A stretch of 64,000 bases of DNA from Planctomycetales bacterium (GTDB taxonomy: Bacteria; Planctomycetota; Planctomycetia; Planctomycetales; Planctomycetaceae): the NCBI GenBank assembly GCA_026400835.1, contig JAPLOA010000079.1:62001-126000 (forward strand). Direction: 5' to 3'. The notes beneath the pieces are model-generated. The model was given only the letters and a program-made list of their open reading frames with translations. It was not told the DNA's origin and did not search any database. A program made the translations under genes and the position numbers. Each line of letters starts with the position of its first letter. The first letter of the stretch is position 1. Below, in pieces: positions 3,057 to 40,492 of this stretch.

Positions 3057-4313
3057 TCAGTTCCGGCCATAGCTATTTGAGGTGTCGACAGCGCCGCTGA
3101 GGCGATTCCGCAGGTCCCGGTCCAGCCGATCCATCAAGATACCCGCCTTAGACAGTTGTCTCACAATCCGGTCGTCGAGTCGAGTGTTGACGTCGGTCGA
3201 TGGATCCGGGTCTAAGTTGAGTCCGATCGCGTCCGCATGCCAGTCTTCGAGAACACGTCGCTGCACGAGACTGGGCACACCCGCCAAGTAGCGTTTCGTA
3301 TTCGCCGCGACATCGTCCCTTTGGCTGTAGATACCCGCGATCTCACTGAGCAGGGTGGTTTCTGTCTTTCCCAATCGAGCCGCGGGGTGAGCTTCAGGGC
3401 TCATCCCCTGCCCCCCTGCTTCAGTTCTTTGTCGAAGAAAATCGTCGAGCACTACCCCCGCATTTTCAGGAATCCCAGTTCCCAGTCTTTCCAGCAGGCG
3501 TTGCTTTTCCTCAGGGGATGAGCTTCGAAGTGAATCCATCGCCTGCTGAGTGAGTTCGCGACGCAATTGTGCTGGCACACGGCTCAACAGATCCTGCAGG
3601 GATGGAGTGGCGATTGTTACATCTCGATCTCGGGGCCGATTCTTTGGAGAGTAATTGCCTGTACCCGGGTCAGGGAAGTACTTTGAAAGATCAAAGTCGT
3701 CATCGAGACCGTTTGACCCCGCGAATGAGCCATCGCCAAATGTATCCGCGTCGGATGGTGTGGCACCATTCAGGTCGTCGCCGACTGGCTGAAGACGGCG
3801 GTTGAATTCGTCAATTACGTTTTGAACTGTCGGAACCGTATGCTCCGGGAGCATGGGGATGACATGCTGCGACAAATTCAGAATATGAGCGGTTGCCAGT
3901 CCAGAGTACGTTTTGCTTACGATCAGACGCATGGGTTCTGACATGGTTATGGCAAAAAATAGCCCTGTCATGCAAATGATTACGCCCTTGATGAGCCCCA
4001 GAACTCCACCAAGGTGTTTATCAAAATCAATGACTCGGGCTTTCTCCATCCAACTGCTGAGCATGCCAGCGGCCACAAACGAGACACCACAGAGTCCAAC
4101 ATAGACCACAAGCATCGCAATCCACTGTTTTAAGGGTGGCGCGACACCGATCATTGGTTCAATGGCTGGAGCGAGGGTGCCGGAGAACTTGAAGCACAGG
4201 AGAAGTGCTATCACCCAGGCAAGTTGCGACAGCAATCCGCGCGACGCCCCCTTGACCATGCAATACAGCAGCACGGCAAGAACAACGATGTCGACGATCT
4301 GGTGTGAGTTCAT
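3057..4313 (-). CDS. CvpA family membrane protein with long hydrophilic C-terminal region
   Basis: The first 135 residues contain four predicted membrane segments (about 7-25, 30-50, 65-88 and 103-125) with the CvpA-type pattern VDIVVLAVLLYCMVKGASRG followed by a glycine-rich third and fourth segment (GGVLGLIKG). CvpA proteins are inner-membrane proteins linked in Escherichia coli to colicin V production and envelope maintenance; the biochemical role is not known. At 418 residues this one is more than twice the usual family length of about 160-180: residues from about 140 on are soluble, rich in charged residues and helices. It is the last gene of a minus-strand run (OMP-like protein to CvpA); dtd ends 82 bases upstream. 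Family call good, function of the tail unknown. Confidence 0.82.
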   Translation of the reverse strand: MNSHQIVDIVVLAVLLYCMVKGASRGLLSQLAWVIALLLCFKFSGTLAPAIEPMIGVAPPLKQWIAMLVVYVGLCGVSFVAAGMLSSWMEKARVIDFDKHLGGVLGLIKGVIICMTGLFFAITMSEPMRLIVSKTYSGLATAHILNLSQHVIPMLPEHTVPTVQNVIDEFNRRLQPVGDDLNGATPSDADTFGDGSFAGSNGLDDDFDLSKYFPDPGTGNYSPKNRPRDRDVTIATPSLQDLLSRVPAQLRRELTQQAMDSLRSSSPEEKQRLLERLGTGIPENAGVVLDDFLRQRTEAGGQGMSPEAHPAARLGKTETTLLSEIAGIYSQRDDVAANTKRYLAGVPSLVQRRVLEDWHADAIGLNLDPDPSTDVNTRLDDRIVRQLSKAGILMDRLDRDLRNRLSGAVDTSNSYGRN

Positions 4314-4905: not shown

Positions 4906-6051
4906 TCAGGAAACTGCGGCAGCTTGCGAGTTCCGGGTGGACAAAAAGCGATCGGCCGTCAAGCCTTCCAAGGAAATAACCGTTTCACTTCCGCAAATCA
5001 CATCCGCAAGAATCGCAGCAGTGCCCGGCGACATTTGCAGGCCCGAACGGAAGTGCCCGGCTCCGACAAATACGTTTGAGAGTCCCGGTACTGCTCCAAG
5101 GGCGGGGAGTTCATCCGGCGATGCCGGGCGAAGTCCGGACCAGCATCGCACAACTTCTGCATGTCGTAATGTCGGAACGAGCGATACCGCGAACTCCAGC
5201 AGTTGTGCAATGCCCTCGGCCGTATTCTTCTTTTCGAATCCAACATCCTCTTGTGTCGATCCAACCAGAATCAATCCATCCTGTCTTGGCACAAGATACT
5301 GCCGACCATGTTCGATGACGCAGTTGAATGGAAGTTCAGGCAATTGCAACTGAACAATTTGACCACGGATTGGTCGGACAGGGATTTCAACTCCCAGAGA
5401 TTGGAGAATCGACGTTGACCATGAGCCCGCAGTAACACAGAGCGAGGAGAAGGAGAGGATTCGATTTGGCAGTCGGGCGTGCACGATTCGATTGTCAGCC
5501 GCGACGAGATTAACGTCGCTCACATGTTCGATAATCTCGACACCTTTTTGCAGACATGCTGCACTCAGTGCCTGAAGATGACGTGGATTCCGGACCTGTG
5601 CAAAATCGGGAAGGTAGACCGTCGACTCAAACGTTGGATTCAGATCCGGGACATATTGAATAGCCTCATTGCTTGTTGGCAAATGAAAGCGTACCCCTTC
5701 ATCAGTCCAGGCCTGAGAGTGAGTCCGGAACAGATTGCCTTCATCCTTATTGAAAACATTCACCGCCCCGCAGACTCGATATCCGTTGTCGATTCCCGTC
5801 TGTTCCAGCAGCCTTTGACTGAAGTCAGCCCAAAGGCTGTGACTATAAGATCTAAGTCGAGCCTCTGGTGTTGCTGCATTCTGAAGGTTGCCCGGTGGCA
5901 ACATTCCTGCACCGGCCCAGGAAGCTTCTTTTCCCAGAGCCTGCCGATCCAAAACGCTGACTGATAAGCCTTTGTCTGCGAGACACAGTGCTGTGGTTAA
6001 CCCGATTACTCCGCCTCCCACAATCAGGACGTCAGGCTGGTGGAGAGGCAT
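4906..6051 (-). CDS. thiO: Glycine oxidase ThiO (FAD-dependent)
   Basis: FAD enzyme of the D-amino-acid oxidase family; ThiO oxidises glycine to iminoglycine for the thiazole part of thiamine. The dinucleotide-binding motif VGGGVIG lies at residues 11-17 after a short start (MPLHQPDVLI), followed by the GKEASWAGAGMLPP segment that is typical for ThiO, and the C-terminal GLRPASPDELPALG and GHFRSGLQMSP elements. Length 381 is normal. No other thiamine genes are near, so the assignment rests on sequence pattern; a related FAD amino-acid oxidase is the alternative. Confidence 0.88.
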   Translation of the reverse strand: MPLHQPDVLIVGGGVIGLTTALCLADKGLSVSVLDRQALGKEASWAGAGMLPPGNLQNAATPEARLRSYSHSLWADFSQRLLEQTGIDNGYRVCGAVNVFNKDEGNLFRTHSQAWTDEGVRFHLPTSNEAIQYVPDLNPTFESTVYLPDFAQVRNPRHLQALSAACLQKGVEIIEHVSDVNLVAADNRIVHARLPNRILSFSSLCVTAGSWSTSILQSLGVEIPVRPIRGQIVQLQLPELPFNCVIEHGRQYLVPRQDGLILVGSTQEDVGFEKKNTAEGIAQLLEFAVSLVPTLRHAEVVRCWSGLRPASPDELPALGAVPGLSNVFVGAGHFRSGLQMSPGTAAILADVICGSETVISLEGLTADRFLSTRNSQAAAVS

Positions 6052-19333: not shown

Positions 19334-19715
19334 GGCCCCTGAGTTTGAACTGCAACAACCGCGAGCAACTTGTCAACTTCTCGCAGATTTCGAAATCTTT
19401 TGTCTCAATACCGGGCGATCACTTACGCTCCTATTCGCCACGATGGTATCCGCTCGGGCACATTCTGCCGAACTGGACCCGAATCACATAACGCGGGCAA
19501 GCCCCTTGGCACATTGCTGGTAAACAGACGTTCGTTAACATTGGTCATCTCATCTGCGATACGAATTTTTTGGACTCACTTTGATTCCACGGCAGGCTTT
19601 GTAACCTGTTGCTGTGTTCATGTTAGGTTGCGGGCGAACATGGTTAATCCTCTGTCGATTCTGCAACCACTGTTTTTAATTGGTTCCACTTTTATCGTAT
19701 CAGGAACGGCCTTCG
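19334..19715. other. Intergenic region between sdhC and phosphoglycerate mutase genes
   Basis: Divergent control region; apart from the minus-strand -10 box at 19328-19333 I find no supported gene or hairpin. A plus-strand TTG at 19680 would extend the mutase frame by twelve codons but lacks a ribosome site. Confidence 0.4.
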
Positions 19716-20924
19716 ATGACCGACATTCATGATTTGACACGACGATTGCAGCGTGCTTCTGATTCAAAAATCGTACTCTATGTGGCTGATGGTCTCGGTG
19801 GCCTGCCGCTGCAGCCGGGTGGAAAAACAGAACTGGAAACTGCCAATACACCCAATCTGGATGCGTTAGCGCAACGAGGTGTTTTGGGGATGAGTATTCC
19901 TGTCCTTCCGGGAATCGCCCCGGGAAGCGGGCCGGGCCATTTGGGATTGTTCGGGTATGACCCCCTGAAGTACGACATTGGCCGAGGAGTTCTTGAGGCA
20001 TTGGGAATCGACTTCGCCCTGACTGATCGTGATGTCGCAGTTCGAGGCAACTTCTGTACGGTTGATGACAACGGAATCATCACAGATCGCCGAGCAGGAC
20101 GCATCTCCAGTGACATTGCAGCCAAGCTCTGCGAAAAAATCGACAAGATCACCATTCCAGGTGTCGAAGTCTTTGTGCGTCATGTGAAGGAGTATCGGCT
20201 GGTAATCGTGATTCGTGGCGATGGACTTGGAGGCAGCGTCAATGACACAGACCCTCAAAGAACCGGAGCCGCTCCACTAAAGCCACAGGGGGCTGATTCG
20301 GCTTCGCAAAAAACAGCCGAGATTCTGGCCGAGTTCATACGGCAGGCTGCAATTATCCTGAAAGATGATGCACCAGCGAATCTGCTCACGATGCGGGGGA
20401 TTGCGAAGATGCCTCCGATACCAAAATTTCAGGAAGTCTACGGAACTCGAGCAGCTGCGATTGCGGTGTATCCGATGTACCGTGGCCTCGCACGCCTTGT
20501 CGATATGGAAATCCTGGATGCAGGACACACGCTCGACGATCAGATGAAGTGCCTGGAAGAGAACTGGTCGAAATACGACTTCTTCTTCATTCATTTCAAA
20601 TACACGGACAGCACTGGTGAAGACGGAAATTTCGACGCGAAGGTAAAACGAACGGAGGAATATGATTCGGCGATTCCGCGAATCAACGCTCTCAAGCCGG
20701 ACGTCCTGATTATTTCAGGAGACCACAGTACTCCCGCAAAGATGAAGTCTCATAGTGGCCATCCGGTCCCGACTATGCTTGTTTCTGACATTTGCCGCTT
20801 CGACGGATCAAAGCAGTTCGGTGAGTCGGCCTGCCGAGTCGGCGAACTGGGAATGTTCGAAGCCAGGTATTTGATGCTTCAGGCTCTATCCCATGCAGGG
20901 CGCCTTGAGAAGTACGGCGCTTGA
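19716..20924 (+). CDS. apgM: 2,3-bisphosphoglycerate-independent phosphoglycerate mutase, archaeal type
   Basis: Interconverts 3- and 2-phosphoglycerate in glycolysis and gluconeogenesis without a bisphosphoglycerate cofactor. The 402-residue protein is of the alkaline-phosphatase superfamily ApgM type rather than the longer bacterial GpmI: it opens with LYVADGLGGLP (metal-binding Asp), then ETANTPNLDALAQRG, PGIAPGSGPGHLGLFGYDP, RGNFCTVDDNG with the DRRAGRI element, and near the C terminus ISGDHSTPAKMKSHSGHPVP with metal-binding Asp and His. The ATG at 19716 starts the conserved frame. No glycolytic neighbour is present. Confidence 0.93.
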   Translation: MTDIHDLTRRLQRASDSKIVLYVADGLGGLPLQPGGKTELETANTPNLDALAQRGVLGMSIPVLPGIAPGSGPGHLGLFGYDPLKYDIGRGVLEALGIDFALTDRDVAVRGNFCTVDDNGIITDRRAGRISSDIAAKLCEKIDKITIPGVEVFVRHVKEYRLVIVIRGDGLGGSVNDTDPQRTGAAPLKPQGADSASQKTAEILAEFIRQAAIILKDDAPANLLTMRGIAKMPPIPKFQEVYGTRAAAIAVYPMYRGLARLVDMEILDAGHTLDDQMKCLEENWSKYDFFFIHFKYTDSTGEDGNFDAKVKRTEEYDSAIPRINALKPDVLIISGDHSTPAKMKSHSGHPVPTMLVSDICRFDGSKQFGESACRVGELGMFEARYLMLQALSHAGRLEKYGA

Positions 20925-32617: not shown

Positions 32618-32945
32618 TGAACATCCGTGTTCATTCTGTCTTTCAATCTTAATCCGCCACAGACTGTCTGCAGGGAGTCAGAATGCTAGCGAAAGTCGCA
32701 GTTTTTACCGAGCCCAGATTTACGGATCCGTCTGGCGAAGTGCTGGTTTCTCCGGGGGTGGTCAGGCTGGATTTACAAAAAATTGCCCGGTCGTGAGAGA
32801 ATGGTGAGATTCTCCGTCAGACGTTGCAAAAAAACTCATGTCAGCCCGGCTATTTGCTTGTGATGAAGAATCACGGCGACAAGAATCTTCAGCATTGCCC
32901 GCGATGTCCCAATTCACGGACTCCCCCCTTCCCAGGATGTCTGCC
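32618..32945. other. Intergenic region, divergent
   Basis: About 330 bases between the 977-residue protein gene (-) and a small coiled-coil protein gene (+). An open stretch upstream of 32946 (from 32838) reads in frame but lacks conserved character and a ribosome site. No promoter boxes could be assigned. Confidence 0.4.
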
Positions 32946-33239
32946 ATGACAGTTCAAAAGCGATTTAACGACACCGAGGCCGAAGCTTTACCAGTAGAAA
33001 TGCTGGAGTTGGGGCGTTTGATAGATTCTATGAAAGGACCGGAGAGAGAAAATCTGGTTTTGGCTTTCAACCGAGTCTCTGATTCAATCCAACGTCGCCG
33101 ACGAATCCTTAACCTTGTTCAGGAAGCGTTGTCCCAACTTCGACTTGACGTCAAATATCTGATGTTTGACCTGGAGACGACACGTCGAGAACGAGACCAA
33201 CTTCAGTCGCAACTGGAAGAAGAAGATACTGGATTCTGA
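32946..33239 (+). CDS. Small coiled-coil protein
   Basis: 97 residues from the ATG at 32946, chosen because AGGA lies eight bases before it. The protein is soluble and almost entirely helical with heptad-like spacing (MLELGRLIDSMKGPERENLV, LRLDVKYLMFDLETTRRERD, QLQSQLEEED), so a dimeric coiled coil is likely. No family recognised. Its transcript runs into the strong hairpin at 33338-33385. Confidence 0.65.
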   Translation: MTVQKRFNDTEAEALPVEMLELGRLIDSMKGPERENLVLAFNRVSDSIQRRRRILNLVQEALSQLRLDVKYLMFDLETTRRERDQLQSQLEEEDTGF

Positions 33240-33337
33240 TAGTCCCGGCCGCAGTGATTTCGATAGATGCGAACCGCCTGGACGGCAAAAAGGCGGTTCC
33301 AAAGACATCTATGGCACGTGCAACTAAGGTTCTTTGA

Positions 33338-33385
33338 AGCCAAATAAAAAACGCCACAGGTTACTGTGGCGTTTTTTATTTGGCT
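33338..33385. terminator. Perfect bidirectional intrinsic terminator
   Basis: Two 22-base arms (33338-33359 and 33364-33385) are exactly complementary around a four-base loop. The GC-rich inner part (ACGCCACAG with CTGTGGCGT) is flanked by an A-run on the left and a T-run on the right, so it works as a terminator on both strands. It lies between two convergent small genes, about 100 bases after the plus-strand stop and 26 bases after the minus-strand stop. Confidence 0.93.
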
Positions 33386-33411: not shown

Positions 33412-33723
33412 TCAGGCGATGTCGAACGACTCTGCACCATCATCACTAATCTCGTCGTCGACAATAAGATTGCCAACGCTGCCGGGTCCGTGATCATAAC
33501 AGTCGTCTGAATGCCACAATGGAAGACCGGCTGCATAGCGAGCCGCAAGCATCATGACCTTCTCTTCAGAACCAGGCTTGGCCGCCGTTGGAGAAGCGGG
33601 ATCAACACCCAACGACCGCAACTCTTCCTCAAACCCGGCATCCAGATCGCTCAGGAATTCGTAGCCTTCAATTTCGGACAAAGATTCAAGTCCAGCATCG
33701 GCTTCGGAATACATAAAAGACAT
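33412..33723 (-). CDS. Small acidic protein, unknown function
   Basis: 103 residues, strongly acidic at both ends (EADAGLESLSEIEGYEFLSD and VDDEISDDGAESFDIA), without signal or membrane segment. The start ATG has GGAG seven bases upstream, and the gene is followed by a strong terminator, which supports expression. The middle has PGSEEKVMMLAARYAAGLP, which could be a short helix-rich motif. No family recognised. Confidence 0.65.
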   Translation of the reverse strand: MSFMYSEADAGLESLSEIEGYEFLSDLDAGFEEELRSLGVDPASPTAAKPGSEEKVMMLAARYAAGLPLWHSDDCYDHGPGSVGNLIVDDEISDDGAESFDIA

Positions 33724-34064
33724 TCAAAGACTCCAGTGGGGTGCAAACCGGTTGCAAAAATGTTGTCATCGATCCTTCACCTCCGTCCCTGGAGATTTTC
33801 GCTTTGGAGGGCCGCCACTCACATCGACTTGTTCCGGCAGTTAACCTTTGAACAAACATACGAGGGGGCACAGCCCTTTCCAACGTGCGAAACCGTTGAA
33901 TCCCTCCGCTGCGGGATTTTTGAATCCCCGGTGCGGAATGTCAACAAAAATTCATGATCACTAAATGTGATTCCAATGATCCAGTCGCTTTCAAGAAATC
34001 AGCCGAGTGACCTTGAGACTGAACCTTCTCCCACTTGTCCTGCAGACTGCCCAAATTCCAAGTT
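33724..34064. other. Long leader region of the small acidic protein gene
   Basis: 340 bases with no supported gene. It contains the candidate promoter at 33916-33944; the leader between this and the gene at 33723 is about 190 bases. No known riboswitch fold is recognised. Confidence 0.35.
33916..33944 (-). promoter_or_regulatory. Candidate promoter with overlapping palindrome
   Basis: On the minus strand TTGACA (33944-33939) is followed after 17 bases by AAAAAT (33921-33916), about 190 bases upstream of the small acidic protein. A palindrome, GGGATT-N4-AATCCC at 33913-33928, covers the -10, which would suit an operator. Sequence pattern only. Confidence 0.35.
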
Positions 34065-34373
34065 TTAGCTTGCGAGTGGATCATTCCTGAAACTGATCAC
34101 ATGTTCTCGAAGAGCTGTCATGAGCGATACGGAAAAGCTGGTGACTTCGAAATGCTCCTCTGATTTCCGCGTCGCGATCAAGTTTGCCCCATCAAGCCAC
34201 CGCATTGACAAACGTCCTCGCAAGAATGCCAAAATCAACAGGACAAGAAACCAGCAAACAAATAGACCCATCACTCCAAAGAGTTCCTTTATCAGTTCGC
34301 TGCAGGCCGTCAGGCCAATTGCAGGTAGTACTGCCCACTGAAGCCACTTCCATTGTTGGTACTTTTGAGCTGA
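34065..34373 (-). pseudogene. Distal half of a membrane-protein gene, cut off by an in-frame TAG
   Basis: Directly after the amber stop at 34374-34376 the same frame stays open for 102 codons to a stop at 34065. The reading, beginning SAQKYQQWKWLQW and continuing into two hydrophobic helices (AVLPAIGLTACSELIKELFG and LFVCWFLVLLILAFLRGR), ends in a cytoplasmic-looking DGANLIATRKSEEHFEVTSF segment. This is the expected continuation (third and fourth helices plus tail) of the upstream half. A GTG at 34274 could reinitiate only its last part. Either a nonsense mutation or a sequencing error, or a readthrough codon. Confidence 0.6.
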
Positions 34374-34835
34374 CTAGGAGACTTTCAGGTAGACTCGAGG
34401 TGTGTTCAATTCCACAGCAAGATTGATCAGCATGGCGACGAAAGCCCAAACTCCCAGAAGAAAATAGAGAGGAATTGCCTCCTGCGGGCTATTTCTTCCG
34501 ACAACCAGATAGATCAACAAGAGAATTCCCAAGGGAATCAGAAGCAGGCCTGTTGCAAGATGTCGCAGTGTTCGGAGCCCATCACTGGGGGCGAGCACTT
34601 TCAATGTAAGAACGCGAAGGTCGTCGGATTGCCCTGTGACGAGGCAAAACTGCGGCAGCGTGACATTGGATCGACAAAGAATTCCGTTCTCGGTCAGTTC
34701 GAAATCCCGATTCTCCGTATTAACCTGCACTGCCTGATCGGGAACCTCCTGTGGCGGTGCATAGGGATTGTCACTTTGAATTGGGCTACCCGCCTTGCGT
34801 CGCAGATTGTCCGGATTATTGAGGCTGCTTTGCAA
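34374..34835 (-). CDS. Membrane protein with NPYAPP motif, proximal half
   Basis: 153 residues up to a TAG. The start is the TTG at 34835, overlapping the upstream gene by 20 bases; there is no ATG. The N terminus carries SDNPYAPP, a motif common at the start of planctomycete membrane proteins, then a soluble region (ELTENGILCRSNVTLPQFCL) with a Cys pair-like layout, then two membrane helices (HLATGLLLIPLGILLLIYLV and YFLLGVWAFVAMLINLAV). The family normally continues with a basic loop and further helices, which here occur after the stop codon in the same frame. Function unknown. Confidence 0.62.
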   Translation of the reverse strand: MQSSLNNPDNLRRKAGSPIQSDNPYAPPQEVPDQAVQVNTENRDFELTENGILCRSNVTLPQFCLVTGQSDDLRVLTLKVLAPSDGLRTLRHLATGLLLIPLGILLLIYLVVGRNSPQEAIPLYFLLGVWAFVAMLINLAVELNTPRVYLKVS

Positions 34836-36636
34836 GCTCTTTTGCTGTCTCGATCAGACGCCTTTGACGGACAGCAAGGTCATGAACCTGCTTCTTCAGC
34901 GAAGGAAGATCTTCACTGGAAGCTGACTGGAGCAGACCGTCAACTTGTTTTGTTCGTCGATTCACCTGCAGTTGAAGATTTCTCAGCATCTTGATTTCAG
35001 CCATCAGTTCAACGAGTCCTGGTTTCTGCGGTGGACCCTCCTGTTGTTGGCTTTTTTGCTGCTGTTCCTTCATCTCCTGCATTTCTTTTTGTGTTGTCTC
35101 GATCAACTGTTTGAGCGATTCAATAATGTCATTTTGTACTGACTGAGTCAGATCTTCGACCTTTGATTCCTGCAGCCATCCCGAAACTGAGCCCATATCA
35201 GCTTCGATGTCTTCAACGGCCAGCAGGATCGAAACTGATGTGCCATCTTCCCGTAGCAGGTTCACCGTCTGTGCACATTCACTGGCGAGTTCCGTCTGTT
35301 GTTGAGCCAATGCGCGACACTGCCCGTAGTATTGATCGAGCCATTCTTTCTGAGGCGTTGCTGCGAGGCTAACGGTGCCTTCATGAATCTGAGTCTCTGC
35401 AGCCAGCATTCTCTGGAATCGGGCTTCCAGCGAGGCCAGCAGCATCTCCTTCTCTTCCTCACGAAGCTGCTTCAGCATCTCTTCCAGCTCTGATGCCGCT
35501 TCATGCAACTCCTCAAGTGCTTCGTCTTCGTGCTCCAGGGCCTTTTCTCGCTCCTGTTCCTTCAATTCCTCAAGTGCACGCTCCATTTGCTGCTGTGCGT
35601 TCTCGAGCTGCTCACGACCCGGAGTCTTTTTGGGTTCATCCTTGCCGGACTTTTCTCCGGACTTACCAGCCGACTTTTTCTTGCCAGATGACTTCTGCTC
35701 AGACTTTGAGCCGGAGCCTTTTGATTTGCCGTCCTTCGATTCGCCATCCTTAGGCTCGCCATCTCCAGGCTTACTGTTCGGAGCACTGTCGCCTTTGGGC
35801 TCGCGGTCACCCTTTTTCTTGTCTTCCTGATCTTTGCCCTCGGGATCCGTCCCTTCAGTATCGCCATCTTTCTTCTCTTCTCCCGGCTTGCCATCAGTCG
35901 GCTTTCCTTTGGCCGACTTGCCATCCTTTGATTTCCCGGTGCTTTTCCCGTCCGATTCCTCTGAACTGTCCGGATCCCTGGCTTCGTCGTCTTCTTTGTC
36001 GTCGCCCTGCTCTGCTTCAGCTTGCTGGTCGTCGTGCTCCTTCATCGAGTCCAGTGTCTTCTTGGCACCTTCGAGAGCTTTTTGCTGGCCGGGAGCTGCA
36101 TTCGAAGGAGCTTCAGAATTCTGTGTTGAAGCTCGGGCTGATTTTTGTTCAGCCAATATGCTTCGAACATCCTTCAGCAAGCCGTTGAGTCTTTCCTGCT
36201 CACGTTCAACACTGCTGCGACGGTCTTCACTTTGCAGCAACTTCAGCAATGTTTCGAGACTGGCAACGATCTCAGTCTGTTTCTCGGTCGCCGTCCCCAG
36301 TTCGCTCTTGCTGAGTAACTCAACAACCTTCTCAATATCTTCTTTGACCTGATCCTCGCGTCCTTTACCAATGGCACGTCGCAGCAGATCGGCTCGCTCC
36401 GGATCCTGACGTCCAAGGATATCGGCCATCTGAGTCAGCATTCGTTCAAAGCGAGCATACCGCCCGCTGATCGCCAACGCATCGTCACGCAGATCCTTAG
36501 GTGTCACAACCTTTGGGGGCACTGTTTTCTTGTCGGGTTCCGAGTCCGATGATTTTGGCTCCTGAGCAACGACGCCAAACCACATCCACAAACAGGTACA
36601 AAAACTTGCCGCAAAGATCATGCTGCGAATATTCAT
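34816..36636 (-). CDS. Secreted/periplasmic coiled-coil protein with charged low-complexity region
   Basis: 606 residues. Signal peptide (1-24, ending VVAQ), then helical segments (about 45-160), a 150-residue low-complexity stretch of Lys, Asp, Gly, Ser, Glu and Pro (about 180-325), and long coiled coils (ALEELKEQEREKALEHEDEA and LEEMLKQLREEEKEMLLASL) to the C terminus. Start ATG has GAGGAT eight bases before it. It is 104 bases downstream of a large membrane protein with a similar coiled-coil tail and overlaps the next gene. The pair resembles the DUF4175-like unit linked to MoxR/DUF58 clusters in planctomycetes (inference); no MoxR gene is here. Confidence 0.75.
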   Translation of the reverse strand: MNIRSMIFAASFCTCLWMWFGVVAQEPKSSDSEPDKKTVPPKVVTPKDLRDDALAISGRYARFERMLTQMADILGRQDPERADLLRRAIGKGREDQVKEDIEKVVELLSKSELGTATEKQTEIVASLETLLKLLQSEDRRSSVEREQERLNGLLKDVRSILAEQKSARASTQNSEAPSNAAPGQQKALEGAKKTLDSMKEHDDQQAEAEQGDDKEDDEARDPDSSEESDGKSTGKSKDGKSAKGKPTDGKPGEEKKDGDTEGTDPEGKDQEDKKKGDREPKGDSAPNSKPGDGEPKDGESKDGKSKGSGSKSEQKSSGKKKSAGKSGEKSGKDEPKKTPGREQLENAQQQMERALEELKEQEREKALEHEDEALEELHEAASELEEMLKQLREEEKEMLLASLEARFQRMLAAETQIHEGTVSLAATPQKEWLDQYYGQCRALAQQQTELASECAQTVNLLREDGTSVSILLAVEDIEADMGSVSGWLQESKVEDLTQSVQNDIIESLKQLIETTQKEMQEMKEQQQKSQQQEGPPQKPGLVELMAEIKMLRNLQLQVNRRTKQVDGLLQSASSEDLPSLKKQVHDLAVRQRRLIETAKELAKQPQ

Positions 36637-36740
36637 AGTGATCTATCCTCAGGAGTGGTTCTCCTGCCCTGCTTCAACCTGGCGGTCAGTATTTCACATA
36701 CAGTTCAGCTGTTGGTCTTGGTTTACACAAATGCTGATCA

Positions 36741-39194
36741 TTACTTCAGGATATCATCAATGAGCTGATTCTTTTGCAGCTTTTTCGTTTCGTCCCGGTT
36801 CTTCTGCAGTTCATCAAGGATGGCCTTCAGATCACGGAGAGCCTCATGAAACTCAGCCATATCTCGAACATTCTCCAGAACCACCTTCAGAGCCAAGATG
36901 ACCTTTGTCACCTCTGCATTCGCATTCGCGACAAGCAATTCCGTGGGCTGTCCATCCTGCGCGGCGACTCTCAGGGCACTGACGGCTCGGTCGGCAGAAG
37001 GTAACATCTCTGCACTGACAACCTTTAGAGGATCCACGATGGATGATCGCATATTCTCGGCCAGCTGCTGTGGAGGCACGGCGTTGTTGATCAACTGGCG
37101 GACGACTTCCTCAAAGCCTTCAATGATGGAACTCAGCTCGTTAGCCTGTCGACGCAAATTGTTGCCACTGCGCGTCGCACTGGTATTCAGGCTGACTCGA
37201 TCCTCCTGAACCGCGTTTGCCCCCGCCTCATCGACTCTCGCAGCAACATCCTTGTGGAACAGCAAGTCGTTGTTGAGTTCTTCCAGTTGGCTGATCACTT
37301 CCTCAAACCGCCCACGCAGAGCAATCTCACGCGTGTAGAGCAGCGACAGAAGCTCCTCGATGCTGACAATGCGAAACAGCATAGGCTCGCCACGAGTCAC
37401 ACCCGGGGCCGGAAAGATGTTAGCATCTGTAGCCGTGATTGACAGCGTCAGCGTCTGCCCCTCCGACAGTTCCAGCACCTGAACATCAAACAGTTCGTAC
37501 GCCTCAGTCTCACTACGGCGAAGTTCGAAGTCGGTCGTGTTTTTGTCCGGAATTAAACGAAACGGCCTCGGTCGCCACGTTGATTCATCGTCGACAAGAA
37601 ACTCAAAAGTTGCCGACTTCAATCCGTAGTCATCCTTGATTCTGCCAGCAACCGGAATCTTGGCGAATCGCGTGATAGCATTGTCGATGCCAGTCAGCTG
37701 GGCCACAACAACTGGCGGCTTGTCTTCCAGCCCTTGCACTCGAAGTGTCTCGGGGCTGACTGTCATGACATCGTCGACGTCATGCAGAAAGAAACGCAGG
37801 TTGGCATTCGAGGGGATCTTCAGAACATCCAATTCTGCAGTCACTGGGACAGTTGTTGTGTCCGGTTCTGAGCCACTTGAGGCGACAGTCTCTTTTGCCG
37901 TTTCAGGCAGTGGTGAGGTAATTTCAAATCGAGCAGAAAAGGCCATCCCATCCTGAGTAATCAGTTTTCTTCCGTTGGAGTCTGACGACTGCGAGTCTCT
38001 CATGGTCAGTGTTGAACCATCGTGGTCTCCTGAGAGCTCAAACTGATCGGAAACAATTCGCACGCCTCGCAGCGCCTTGCTGGAGGTTGCCGTCAGTTCA
38101 AATAATGTTCCGATCGGCAACTGAACTTCACTGCCATTGACGGAAATCGACGTCTCGCGCTGCTGATTCCAGCCGGTGTATTCAGGGTAAACACACTTCA
38201 GCACTATCCCATCAATCCCAGGCGGATTTACCACATCCACATGATAGGGCGTTCGGCTGCGATAATCGCCAGCCAGCAGTTCCACAATGATCGGTTCCTG
38301 CAGACGCGTCACAACAAAGCGAAACTTTCGGTTCGATGATGATGTCGGAGAAACGTACGTTCGACTTCGTGAACCATCTGCTCTGACAACATCGACTCGA
38401 ACACGGTCCGGAACGATCCAATCCTGCCCTTCAGTGGGACCACCGTCAGGGACAAACATCTCAAGTTCCAGATCAGCCCCGCGCGGATGACGATACAGAA
38501 GTTGATCATCCGCCGGAACAAATTCGACAGCCCTGTCGCCCGGCTGAGCAATCGCGACCATTTTCAGATCTGTGGTTCGTTCATGGTAGGTTTCATCGCA
38601 AAGAACAAATGCACTCCACCAGCGAGTCAGCAGTTGCGGCTGAGCGATGGCTGTAACGAGCAAAGACAACAGCAACCCGCCCGCGAAGAGACTCAACCGT
38701 TTGACTGATGAAATGTCGAAGATTTCATCAGAGACAACGGTCTCCGCGAGTGCTTCTGCTTCGTGAATCGACCTTTCCAGCATCGGACGTGTCAGCGGCC
38801 CCTCAACTGGCAAGCCTTTTGATGTTTCGATCGATGTGATCAGGCGATCCTGGAACTGCGGAAACCTGCGTTCCAGAATCAACGCGATGTCCAGGTCACG
38901 AACGCGGCGCAGGAGCGGAAAGCAAACGCGACTCGCCAGAAGCCATAACACGGCGGGCAGCATCACGCCCAACAGGATTGCTCGAAGACCGACAGGAAGC
39001 TCGAGATGCTGAAGCAGAAACCAGCCAATGTCCAGAGTGGTGGTCACCCAGAAGACCACGGCCGCAAAACACACCGTGAGCAGGACACCAGTGGCCACGG
39101 CATCACGCCGCAATCGAAAACGCACGCGCCGGATCAGTGCTTGAACTTTCGGCGGAATCGAAATTTGAGTGACTGTTTGAGTCGGTGAAGACAT
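36741..39194 (-). CDS. Large membrane-anchored protein (DUF4175-like)
   Basis: 817 residues from the ATG at 39194, preferred over a GTG at 39239 because GGGA lies just upstream and the frame before it is not conserved-looking. Two N-terminal membrane helices (about 35-60 and 70-95) are followed by RDLDIALILERRFPQFQDRL, a third helix near 165-185, and a long beta-rich periplasmic region with Ig-like stretches (DVVNPPGIDGIVLKCVYPEY). The C-terminal 150 residues are helical (ELLVANANAEVTKVILALKV, FHEALRDLKAILDELQKNRD). The layout fits DUF4175-type proteins. Probably an envelope-associated complex with the downstream coiled-coil protein. Confidence 0.72.
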   Translation of the reverse strand: MSSPTQTVTQISIPPKVQALIRRVRFRLRRDAVATGVLLTVCFAAVVFWVTTTLDIGWFLLQHLELPVGLRAILLGVMLPAVLWLLASRVCFPLLRRVRDLDIALILERRFPQFQDRLITSIETSKGLPVEGPLTRPMLERSIHEAEALAETVVSDEIFDISSVKRLSLFAGGLLLSLLVTAIAQPQLLTRWWSAFVLCDETYHERTTDLKMVAIAQPGDRAVEFVPADDQLLYRHPRGADLELEMFVPDGGPTEGQDWIVPDRVRVDVVRADGSRSRTYVSPTSSSNRKFRFVVTRLQEPIIVELLAGDYRSRTPYHVDVVNPPGIDGIVLKCVYPEYTGWNQQRETSISVNGSEVQLPIGTLFELTATSSKALRGVRIVSDQFELSGDHDGSTLTMRDSQSSDSNGRKLITQDGMAFSARFEITSPLPETAKETVASSGSEPDTTTVPVTAELDVLKIPSNANLRFFLHDVDDVMTVSPETLRVQGLEDKPPVVVAQLTGIDNAITRFAKIPVAGRIKDDYGLKSATFEFLVDDESTWRPRPFRLIPDKNTTDFELRRSETEAYELFDVQVLELSEGQTLTLSITATDANIFPAPGVTRGEPMLFRIVSIEELLSLLYTREIALRGRFEEVISQLEELNNDLLFHKDVAARVDEAGANAVQEDRVSLNTSATRSGNNLRRQANELSSIIEGFEEVVRQLINNAVPPQQLAENMRSSIVDPLKVVSAEMLPSADRAVSALRVAAQDGQPTELLVANANAEVTKVILALKVVLENVRDMAEFHEALRDLKAILDELQKNRDETKKLQKNQLIDDILK

Positions 39195-39239
39195 GTTGTC
39201 CCTGCATCTGTTCCCGACTGGCGTTGTCCCCCCGGACAC

Positions 39240-39556
39240 CGTCAGTCTGACGGGAGTCTATGCTGTCCCGGCAGGCAGAGAAAGAGACGCCTTTCAGATT
39301 CCGTATCCCAACGAGGTTCTGCATTTTCTCAGGCCGCTGTTCTATTCAGGAGCAGAACACGGCCGGATTATGCCCTGAATCGTTTTACAAACAACCGCGA
39401 GTTCGTCGCAATGACGATTGAATTTCCTCTAGAATTCTTGTGTTGATGCAAATCCACGGATCCAATGGTATGCCAAAGACCGAACAGGAATCGACTGTTC
39501 TCCGGAATGCTCATTCCGACCGTGTGTCCAATCCATGTTAGTCCCGAGAGCGAACG
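39240..39556. other. Intergenic region, divergent
   Basis: About 320 bases between the DUF4175-like gene (-) and the SHD1 gene (+). No gene or clear promoter box found. Confidence 0.4.
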
Positions 39557-40492
39557 ATGAATTCCAAATCCATAGCTGCCCTGCTTGTCGCCATTTCCTG
39601 TCTCGTGTCAGAGACTACGGTCGCACGTGATTGGACCGACGCAACTGGCAAACACAAGTTCTCAGGAGACCTGATTGCCGCCAGCCCTGAAACGATCCTG
39701 CTGCGAGGAAAACGCAAGACACTTGAGGCGTATGTCGTTTCTGAACTCAGCGAAGCCGATCAGGCGTTCGTAAAGGAGTATTTGGAGTCAAAAACGGATG
39801 ATGTCGCTCCGGAGAAAATGCAGACCTGGACTGGTCGAGAAGGAGTCAGTCTCCGCGGTCGAGTGATCGGTTACGGAACACGAACACTTGAGATCACGAC
39901 TCAGTCTGGAGCAATCCAGGTCAACAAGACACCATTGAGCAGAATGGACGAGATCTACAAAAAAATGATGCCAAAGATTGTGGCAGAGTTCGACGACAAT
40001 TCGGTGAATACGGAAGCTGATCTTGCGCTCTGGGGACGCAAGCTGAGAGGAAAAGAGAAATCCTTCACTGTTGACGGCGTCCTGATGGAACTTGAAAACG
40101 GTGAGAAGATTGCAGTTCCTTTGTTCCTGTTTTCAGAAAAGGAACGCGAAGTTCTCGAAGCCGGCTGGGACACATGGAAAGCAGAAGCCACCGAAGAGGA
40201 CGAGCGAAACCGTGAAAGCTTTCTAGCCGAGGCCTCTGCGGCCGAGTACCACCGTAATCAGGAAGCTGCCGCTCAGGCCAATCAACAGATTCAGTTGATG
40301 CAGTTGAGCATGATGGCTGTAAATGCCGGGTTCGCACACATCTGGCAAGTCCAGATGACGCCTCGACCGGGCGTTCGTGCTCGACCGATGGTTGTTATGG
40401 TCCCTGCACAAAACAGTGCACAAGCTCAGACCCTCGCGGCAGAAAAGTATCCCGCTTTCGTACCCGGCGCAACGGCTCAGGTGAGTTATTAG
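39557..40492 (+). CDS. SHD1-domain secreted protein
   Basis: 311 residues. Signal peptide (about 1-23, ending VARD) followed by the SHD1 pattern DWTDATGKHKFSGDLIAASP and ELSEADQAFVKEYLESK, a beta-barrel module shared with eukaryotic SLA1 and expanded in planctomycetes. A second similar unit follows (TWTGREGVSLRGRVIGYGTR with LSRMDEIYKKM). The C-terminal third is helical with Gln- and Ala-rich parts and ends in a Pro/Val/Met segment. Function unknown; SHD1 in eukaryotes binds NPFXD-type peptides, not shown here. Its last 270 bases lie opposite another open frame. Confidence 0.8.
   Translation: MNSKSIAALLVAISCLVSETTVARDWTDATGKHKFSGDLIAASPETILLRGKRKTLEAYVVSELSEADQAFVKEYLESKTDDVAPEKMQTWTGREGVSLRGRVIGYGTRTLEITTQSGAIQVNKTPLSRMDEIYKKMMPKIVAEFDDNSVNTEADLALWGRKLRGKEKSFTVDGVLMELENGEKIAVPLFLFSEKEREVLEAGWDTWKAEATEEDERNRESFLAEASAAEYHRNQEAAAQANQQIQLMQLSMMAVNAGFAHIWQVQMTPRPGVRARPMVVMVPAQNSAQAQTLAAEKYPAFVPGATAQVSY

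What the first reader, a model, noticed from the sequence alone, without database searches (positions are those of the whole stretch)
34065..34835. In-frame amber codon splitting a NPYAPP membrane-protein gene
The 153-codon frame ends in TAG at 34374, and the same frame then runs on for 102 codons with two more hydrophobic helices and a cytoplasmic-looking end, as expected for one continuous protein. This could be a recent nonsense mutation, an assembly error, or programmed stop-codon readthrough. The context around the stop is otherwise clean, without frame change.
Basis: seen in the sequence. Interest (0 to 1): 0.5.

Follow-up and report, generated by a model that had tools for sequence, protein, structure and literature searches.

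The report
Planctomycete membrane gene with premature stop
In this planctomycete an uncharacterised membrane-protein gene carries a stop codon in its middle where relatives carry an ordinary amino-acid codon; it looks like a recently inactivated gene, which is an ordinary event.

Summary
On the minus strand (34835 to 34065) a 153-codon frame ends in TAG (34374-34376), and the same frame runs on for 102 codons to a TAA. The two parts are one gene. A sister genome of the genus (G015) has a 93% identical orthologue between the same neighbours, open from end to end, with a leucine codon at the TAG. In 22 of 25 more distant relatives that alignment column is V, L, I or M, and none of the 25 stops there. 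A profile built without window and sister still recognises the part after the TAG.

Best explanation: a recent nonsense mutation in a fast-evolving, probably dispensable gene. Nonsynonymous differences from the sister are 13 of 27, against 377 of 1612 in 28 other genes (p = 0.005). The sister's probable start codon is also missing here. Nothing positive supports readthrough or recoding: RF1 is present, TAG is a shared ordinary stop in 6 of 6 testable neighbours, PylS gives only sub-cut-off matches, and no credible UAG-reading tRNA was found. Assembly error is unlikely (two adjacent bases differ; no frameshift in accepted genes over about 41 kb aligned to the sister), but reads were not available. 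Ordinary as a kind.

The parts
34377..34835 (-). Proximal part of the disrupted gene, 153 codons from a TTG: NPYAPP motif, C...LP..C..TG pattern, two hydrophobic segments
   Evidence: 91% identical to the sister over residues 2-153
34374..34376 (-). In-frame TAG; a leucine codon in the sister, V/L/I/M in 22 of 25 distant relatives (R in 2, Y in 1)
34065..34373 (-). Distal part of the same gene, 102 codons plus TAA (34065-34067): one strong hydrophobic segment and the conserved C-terminal motif region
   Evidence: independent profile match of 21.5 bits
34791..34793 (-). Codon 15: the sister's first in-frame usual start codon lies here; the window has no start codon at this place
   Evidence: 5 of 25 relatives have Met in this gappy column
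34816..36636 (-). Upstream neighbour (606 aa, no Pfam match), whose end overlaps the listed start of the disrupted gene by 20 bases; same order in the sister

Best explanation
A recent nonsense mutation has broken a single gene for a small membrane protein of unknown function (about 190-280 aa in relatives, NPYAPP family of planctomycetes). Shown: the frame is continuous, relatives have a sense codon at the stop, and the distal part belongs to the same family. Inferred: ribosomes stop at the TAG through RF1, giving at most a 153-residue product without the distal hydrophobic segment and C-terminal motif; the gene is dispensable, so the lesion was tolerated; and the lesion is young, since there is no frameshift and both halves show the same ratio of nonsynonymous to synonymous change.
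For: Sister orthologue open across the whole length, 93% identical, no indel, same neighbours. TAG column hydrophobic in 22 of 25 relatives, stop in 0 of 25. Distal part recognised by an independent profile. Of 27 window ORFs whose stop codon falls in a sister block, this is the only one whose stop faces a sense codon; the other 26 face a stop. N:S differences 13:14 here against 377:1235 in 28 other genes, Fisher p = 0.005; its dN/dS of 0.30 is the highest of the 29 accepted genes, the next being 0.27. Sister's probable start codon absent in the window. F to L at residue 238, a column with F in 16 of 25 relatives. RF1 present; TAG an ordinary stop shared with the sister in 6 of 6 testable ORFs. 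The gene is not universal: 44 of 59 genomes gave no match at E <= 0.01. Another family member, in G005, has an internal TGA.
Against: Two adjacent bases differ from the sister at the stop codon, so at least two changes (possibly one per lineage) are needed, not one. The raised dN/dS may only reflect a fast-evolving family (16-26% identity to the 25 distant relatives), and there is only one close orthologue. dN/dS is equally low in both halves (0.302 and 0.297), which would also fit a full-length protein still under selection. Column 238 has L in 4 of 25 relatives too. No reads were seen.
Confidence: 0.82

Rival explanations
1. Assembly or base-calling error: the gene is intact in the organism and the TAG is an artefact.
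For: The sister and relatives are intact; reads were not available and the genome is a draft of 112 contigs.
Against: Two adjacent bases differ, unlike a single miscall. No accepted gene in about 41 kb aligned to the sister has a frameshift or another unmatched stop. The substitution pattern and the missing start codon also point to a gene under relaxed constraint.
Confidence: 0.11
2. The UAG is read through, by programmed readthrough or a suppressor tRNA, so that the full-length protein is still made.
For: The distal half is open, recognisable, and has the same dN/dS as the proximal half. ARAGORN calls one tRNA with anticodon UUA in an array on contig C6; such an anticodon could read UAG by wobble (recalled).
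Against: The stop is not conserved in the sister or the 25 relatives. RF1 present; TAG is an ordinary shared stop in 6 of 6 testable ORFs. PylS matches stay far below the cut-off, as in controls. No CUA anticodon among the ARAGORN calls in 42 loci that cover the 64 tRNAs found. The UUA call is doubtful: the covariance model fits a longer tRNA with a long variable region (2018-2101), below the gathering score. Limits: only 150 of 287 tRNA candidates were scored, and at least one array tRNA (5050-5120) had no ARAGORN call.
Confidence: 0.04
3. Gene fission: the two frames are made as separate working proteins.
For: Usual start codons occur in the distal frame (GTG and ATG at codons 188-189).
Against: The first of them lies 34 codons after the stop and inside the distal hydrophobic segment. 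None of the 25 relatives or the sister is split there.
Confidence: 0.03

Closest known systems
Bacterial pseudogene made by a nonsense substitution (general kind)
   Same: In-frame stop in an otherwise collinear gene, sense codon in orthologues, no loss of downstream sequence, raised nonsynonymous share
   Different: Nothing that sets it apart; both halves are still well preserved, so it would be a young case
Programmed stop-codon readthrough or UAG recoding (general kind, including pyrrolysine)
   Same: Open frame of the same protein continues after a UAG
   Different: The stop is not conserved, no dedicated decoding machinery was found, and TAG works as a normal terminator in neighbouring genes
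NPYAPP membrane-protein family of planctomycetes (my label; no Pfam or NCBIfam match for the read-through frame)
   Same: N-terminal NP(Y/F) motif, C...LP..C..TG pattern, hydrophobic segments, C-terminal motif region; directly after the same upstream gene in the sister and in G003, G006 and G008
   Different: The relatives aligned are open through the position where the window has TAG

Membership tests
Nonsense pseudogene | Premature in-frame stop at a position where intact orthologues have a sense codon | tested here: met
   Sister has Leu; 0 of 25 distant relatives stop there
Nonsense pseudogene | Homology continues past the stop | tested here: met
   93% identity to the sister over the whole length; independent profile match
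Nonsense pseudogene | Relaxed selection after the lesion | tested here: inconclusive
   Gene-wide nonsynonymous share raised (p = 0.005), but equal in both halves, in a fast-evolving family
Nonsense pseudogene | No full-length product | not testable with these tools
   Needs proteomics or ribosome profiling
Programmed UAG readthrough or recoding | Stop codon conserved in orthologues | tested here: not met
   Sense codon in the sister and no stop in 25 relatives
Programmed UAG readthrough or recoding | UAG-decoding tRNA or PylS present | tested here: inconclusive
   PylS only below the cut-off; no CUA anticodon seen; one doubtful UUA call; 150 of 287 tRNA candidates scored
Programmed UAG readthrough or recoding | TAG not used as an ordinary terminator (for genome-wide recoding) | tested here: not met
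   RF1 present; 6 of 6 testable TAG-ending ORFs also end in TAG in the sister
NPYAPP membrane family | Conserved N, P, C, P, C and G positions (N23, P24, C54, P61, C64, G68) in the N-terminal part | tested here: met
   Alignment A1 of 27 sequences
NPYAPP membrane family | One uninterrupted protein that includes the distal part | tested here: not met
   Interrupted by TAG in the window only

The most novel reading that the evidence does not exclude
The TAG is tolerated because the cell reads some UAG codons, for example through the tRNA array on contig C6 that also carries a second EF-Tu, so that the full-length protein is still made.
Probability: 0.03. Interest if true: 0.6.

Novelty: new member of a known kind. 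Interest (0 to 1): 0.08.

Why it matters
It matters mainly for annotation: the two open frames should be recorded as one disrupted gene, not as two proteins. It also shows that genes of this fast-changing planctomycete membrane family can be lost. If readthrough were shown instead, it would point to stop-codon suppression in a planctomycete, which would be surprising.

Tried and rejected
Rejected: orthologues ending at the same position (0 of 25 aligned relatives and not the sister); a frame change near the stop (the alignment is ungapped through the gene); genome-wide recoding of TAG; a UUA suppressor tRNA (doubtful, not fully excluded); the distal half as a separate gene.

Led nowhere: the read-through frame has 0 Pfam and 0 NCBIfam families. 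Scanned singly, members of A1 give 26 Pfam families matched by one or two of 27 members each, best E 9.2e-5, which I read as generic membrane-segment matches. Best PDB sequence match E = 0.12. The genome-contig scan returned only the sister. No structure was predicted: relatives from genome-search loci are not among the inputs the tool lists, and I did not send them. A paper search for 'stop codon readthrough' with 'Planctomycetes' listed 2 papers, and one for tRNA array, bacteria and EF-Tu listed 4; I saw listings and abstract openings only, and none of the titles describes such a case.

Rows dropped: the profile contained the window's own sequence, so its scores for the window are not used; one search repeats the test without window and sister. 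Of 35 ORFs, nine were not aligned: the window's own two ORFs (the read-through frame stands in for them), three overlong ones (one each in L034, L031, L014) and four partial or duplicate ones (L048, L049, L017, and one in L005). For the selection comparison, 30 of 44 window ORFs had a sister block; ORFs 19370-19732 and 33511-33957 were dropped as spurious (sister stops inside, and a frameshift in the first), and gene 33412-33723 was added, which gives 28 others. ORF 32838-33239 has a sister stop at codon 13, read as a start listed too early, and was kept.

Full report
Observation. The window lies in a draft planctomycete genome (G000, 7,578,519 bases, 112 contigs, listed as 99.99% complete; window = C34:62001-126000). 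On the minus strand a frame of 153 codons starts at a TTG (34833-34835) and ends in TAG (34374-34376). The same frame is open for 102 more codons and ends in TAA (34065-34067). Hydropathy shows two hydrophobic segments before the stop and one strong one after it, so the claim of two distal helices is only partly borne out.

One gene, not two. The nearest relative held, G015, has the same gene between the same neighbours. Its contig has the length and position of CANHVD010000007.1, titled MAG Planctomycetaceae bacterium isolate RE-26jul17-197. The sister gene is 93% identical over the read-through length, lies in an open frame of 255 codons, and has a leucine codon where the window has TAG; two adjacent bases differ. 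There is no insertion or deletion in the gene. With the read-through frame as query, 15 of 170 genomes of the family match at E <= 1e-6, window genome included; of the 18 matches listed, only the window's own has a stop inside. With the proximal part, 15 of 59 genomes match at E <= 0.01; of 28 matches listed, one, in G005, has an internal TGA. In an alignment of 27 sequences the column of the TAG holds V (12), L (6), I (3), R (2), M (1) and Y (1) in the 25 members other than window and sister. A profile made from those 25 alone scores the distal 102 residues at 21.5 bits; the best of 200 shuffles reaches 6.1.

Mutation. Differences between window and sister in this gene are 13 nonsynonymous and 14 synonymous; in 28 other genes of the window they sum to 377 and 1235 (Fisher p = 0.005). 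The gene's dN/dS of 0.30 is the highest of the 29 accepted genes, the next being 0.27. The two halves have the same ratio (0.302 and 0.297), so if the stop inactivates the gene, it did so recently. The sister's first in-frame usual start codon (codon 15 of the window frame) is absent in the window; the only usual start in the window before the NPYAPP motif is the TTG. At residue 238, after the stop, the window has L where the sister has F and the 25 relatives have F (16), Y (4), L (4) and V (1). These points fit a gene being lost. The evidence from selection is modest, because the family evolves fast (16-26% identity to the 25 distant relatives) and there is only one close orthologue. The two-base difference at the stop means more than one substitution since the common ancestor.

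Error. Of 44 window ORFs, 30 could be aligned with the sister over about 41 kb. No ORF accepted as a gene shows a frameshift, and of 27 ORFs whose stop codon falls in a sister block only this one faces a sense codon. Two adjacent differences are unlike a single miscall. Reads were not available.

Readthrough or recoding. RF1 is present above the prfA cut-off. In 6 of 6 other TAG-ending ORFs whose stop lies in a sister block, the sister also ends in TAG at that place. PylS gives two matches far below the cut-off, like most control genomes. A covariance search found 64 tRNAs, with 150 of 287 candidates scored. ARAGORN on 42 loci that cover these 64 called no CUA anticodon. It called one tRNA with UUA, in an array on contig C6. 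There the covariance model prefers a longer tRNA with a long variable region (2018-2101; 28.5 bits, gathering score 47), and the minimum-energy fold is not a cloverleaf, so that anticodon is doubtful. At least one array tRNA found by covariance (5050-5120) was not called by ARAGORN, so its anticodon was not read.

Verdict. Nonsense mutation in an uncharacterised planctomycete membrane-protein gene (0.82), ahead of assembly error (0.11), readthrough (0.04) and fission (0.03). It is ordinary as a kind. What the family does is unknown: the read-through frame has no Pfam or NCBIfam match and the family profile no PDB match better than E = 0.12. In G003, G006 and G008, members lie directly after the relative of the gene at 34816-36636, as in window and sister, and in tandem. 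The protein may therefore act with that operon; this is inference.

Noticed on the way. Contig C6 of the same genome carries an array of 21 ARAGORN-called tRNAs with a second EF-Tu gene inside it. This copy is above the EF-Tu family cut-off and 65% identical to the genome's other EF-Tu. Of the other 17 genomes of the genus, 12 show one match at E <= 1e-50 (64-66% identical where listed), 5 show none, and none shows two. Of 22 related loci on viral contigs, 13 lie on contigs of 192-619 kb. It bears on the finding only if its tRNAs read UAG, for which there is no good evidence.

Noticed in passing
G000:C6:1652-5206 (L123; contig of 15,421 bases): Array of 21 ARAGORN-called tRNAs with a second EF-Tu gene (3138-4313, 391 aa, 65% identical to the genome's other EF-Tu) inside it; none of the other 17 genus genomes shows two EF-Tu matches at E <= 1e-50. 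Related EF-Tu genes occur on 22 viral contigs, 13 of them 192-619 kb long. It may come from a large mobile element or phage (inference).
   Followed up: partly
G000:C83:32420-34251 (L124:4421-6252): A second cluster of 11 ARAGORN-called tRNAs on the minus strand.
   Followed up: no
window 18991-40491 against G015:C7: Synonymous divergence from the sister is patchy: 0.07-0.12 in genes between 19680 and 32617, 0.22-0.36 in 32838-33239 and 33412-33723, 0.06-0.12 in the disrupted gene, then 0.26-0.33 from 34816 to 40489. This could reflect recombination.
   Followed up: no
G003:C264, G006:C133 and G008:C282: Members of the NPYAPP family stand in tandem directly after the relative of the gene at window 34816-36636.
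   Followed up: partly
window 33337-33384: Terminator-like inverted repeat between two converging genes (32838-33239 plus, 33412-33723 minus), kept in the sister, which also matches it in the opposite orientation.
   Followed up: no
G005:C41:17253-17573: Another member of the same family with an internal TGA in the matched stretch.
   Followed up: no
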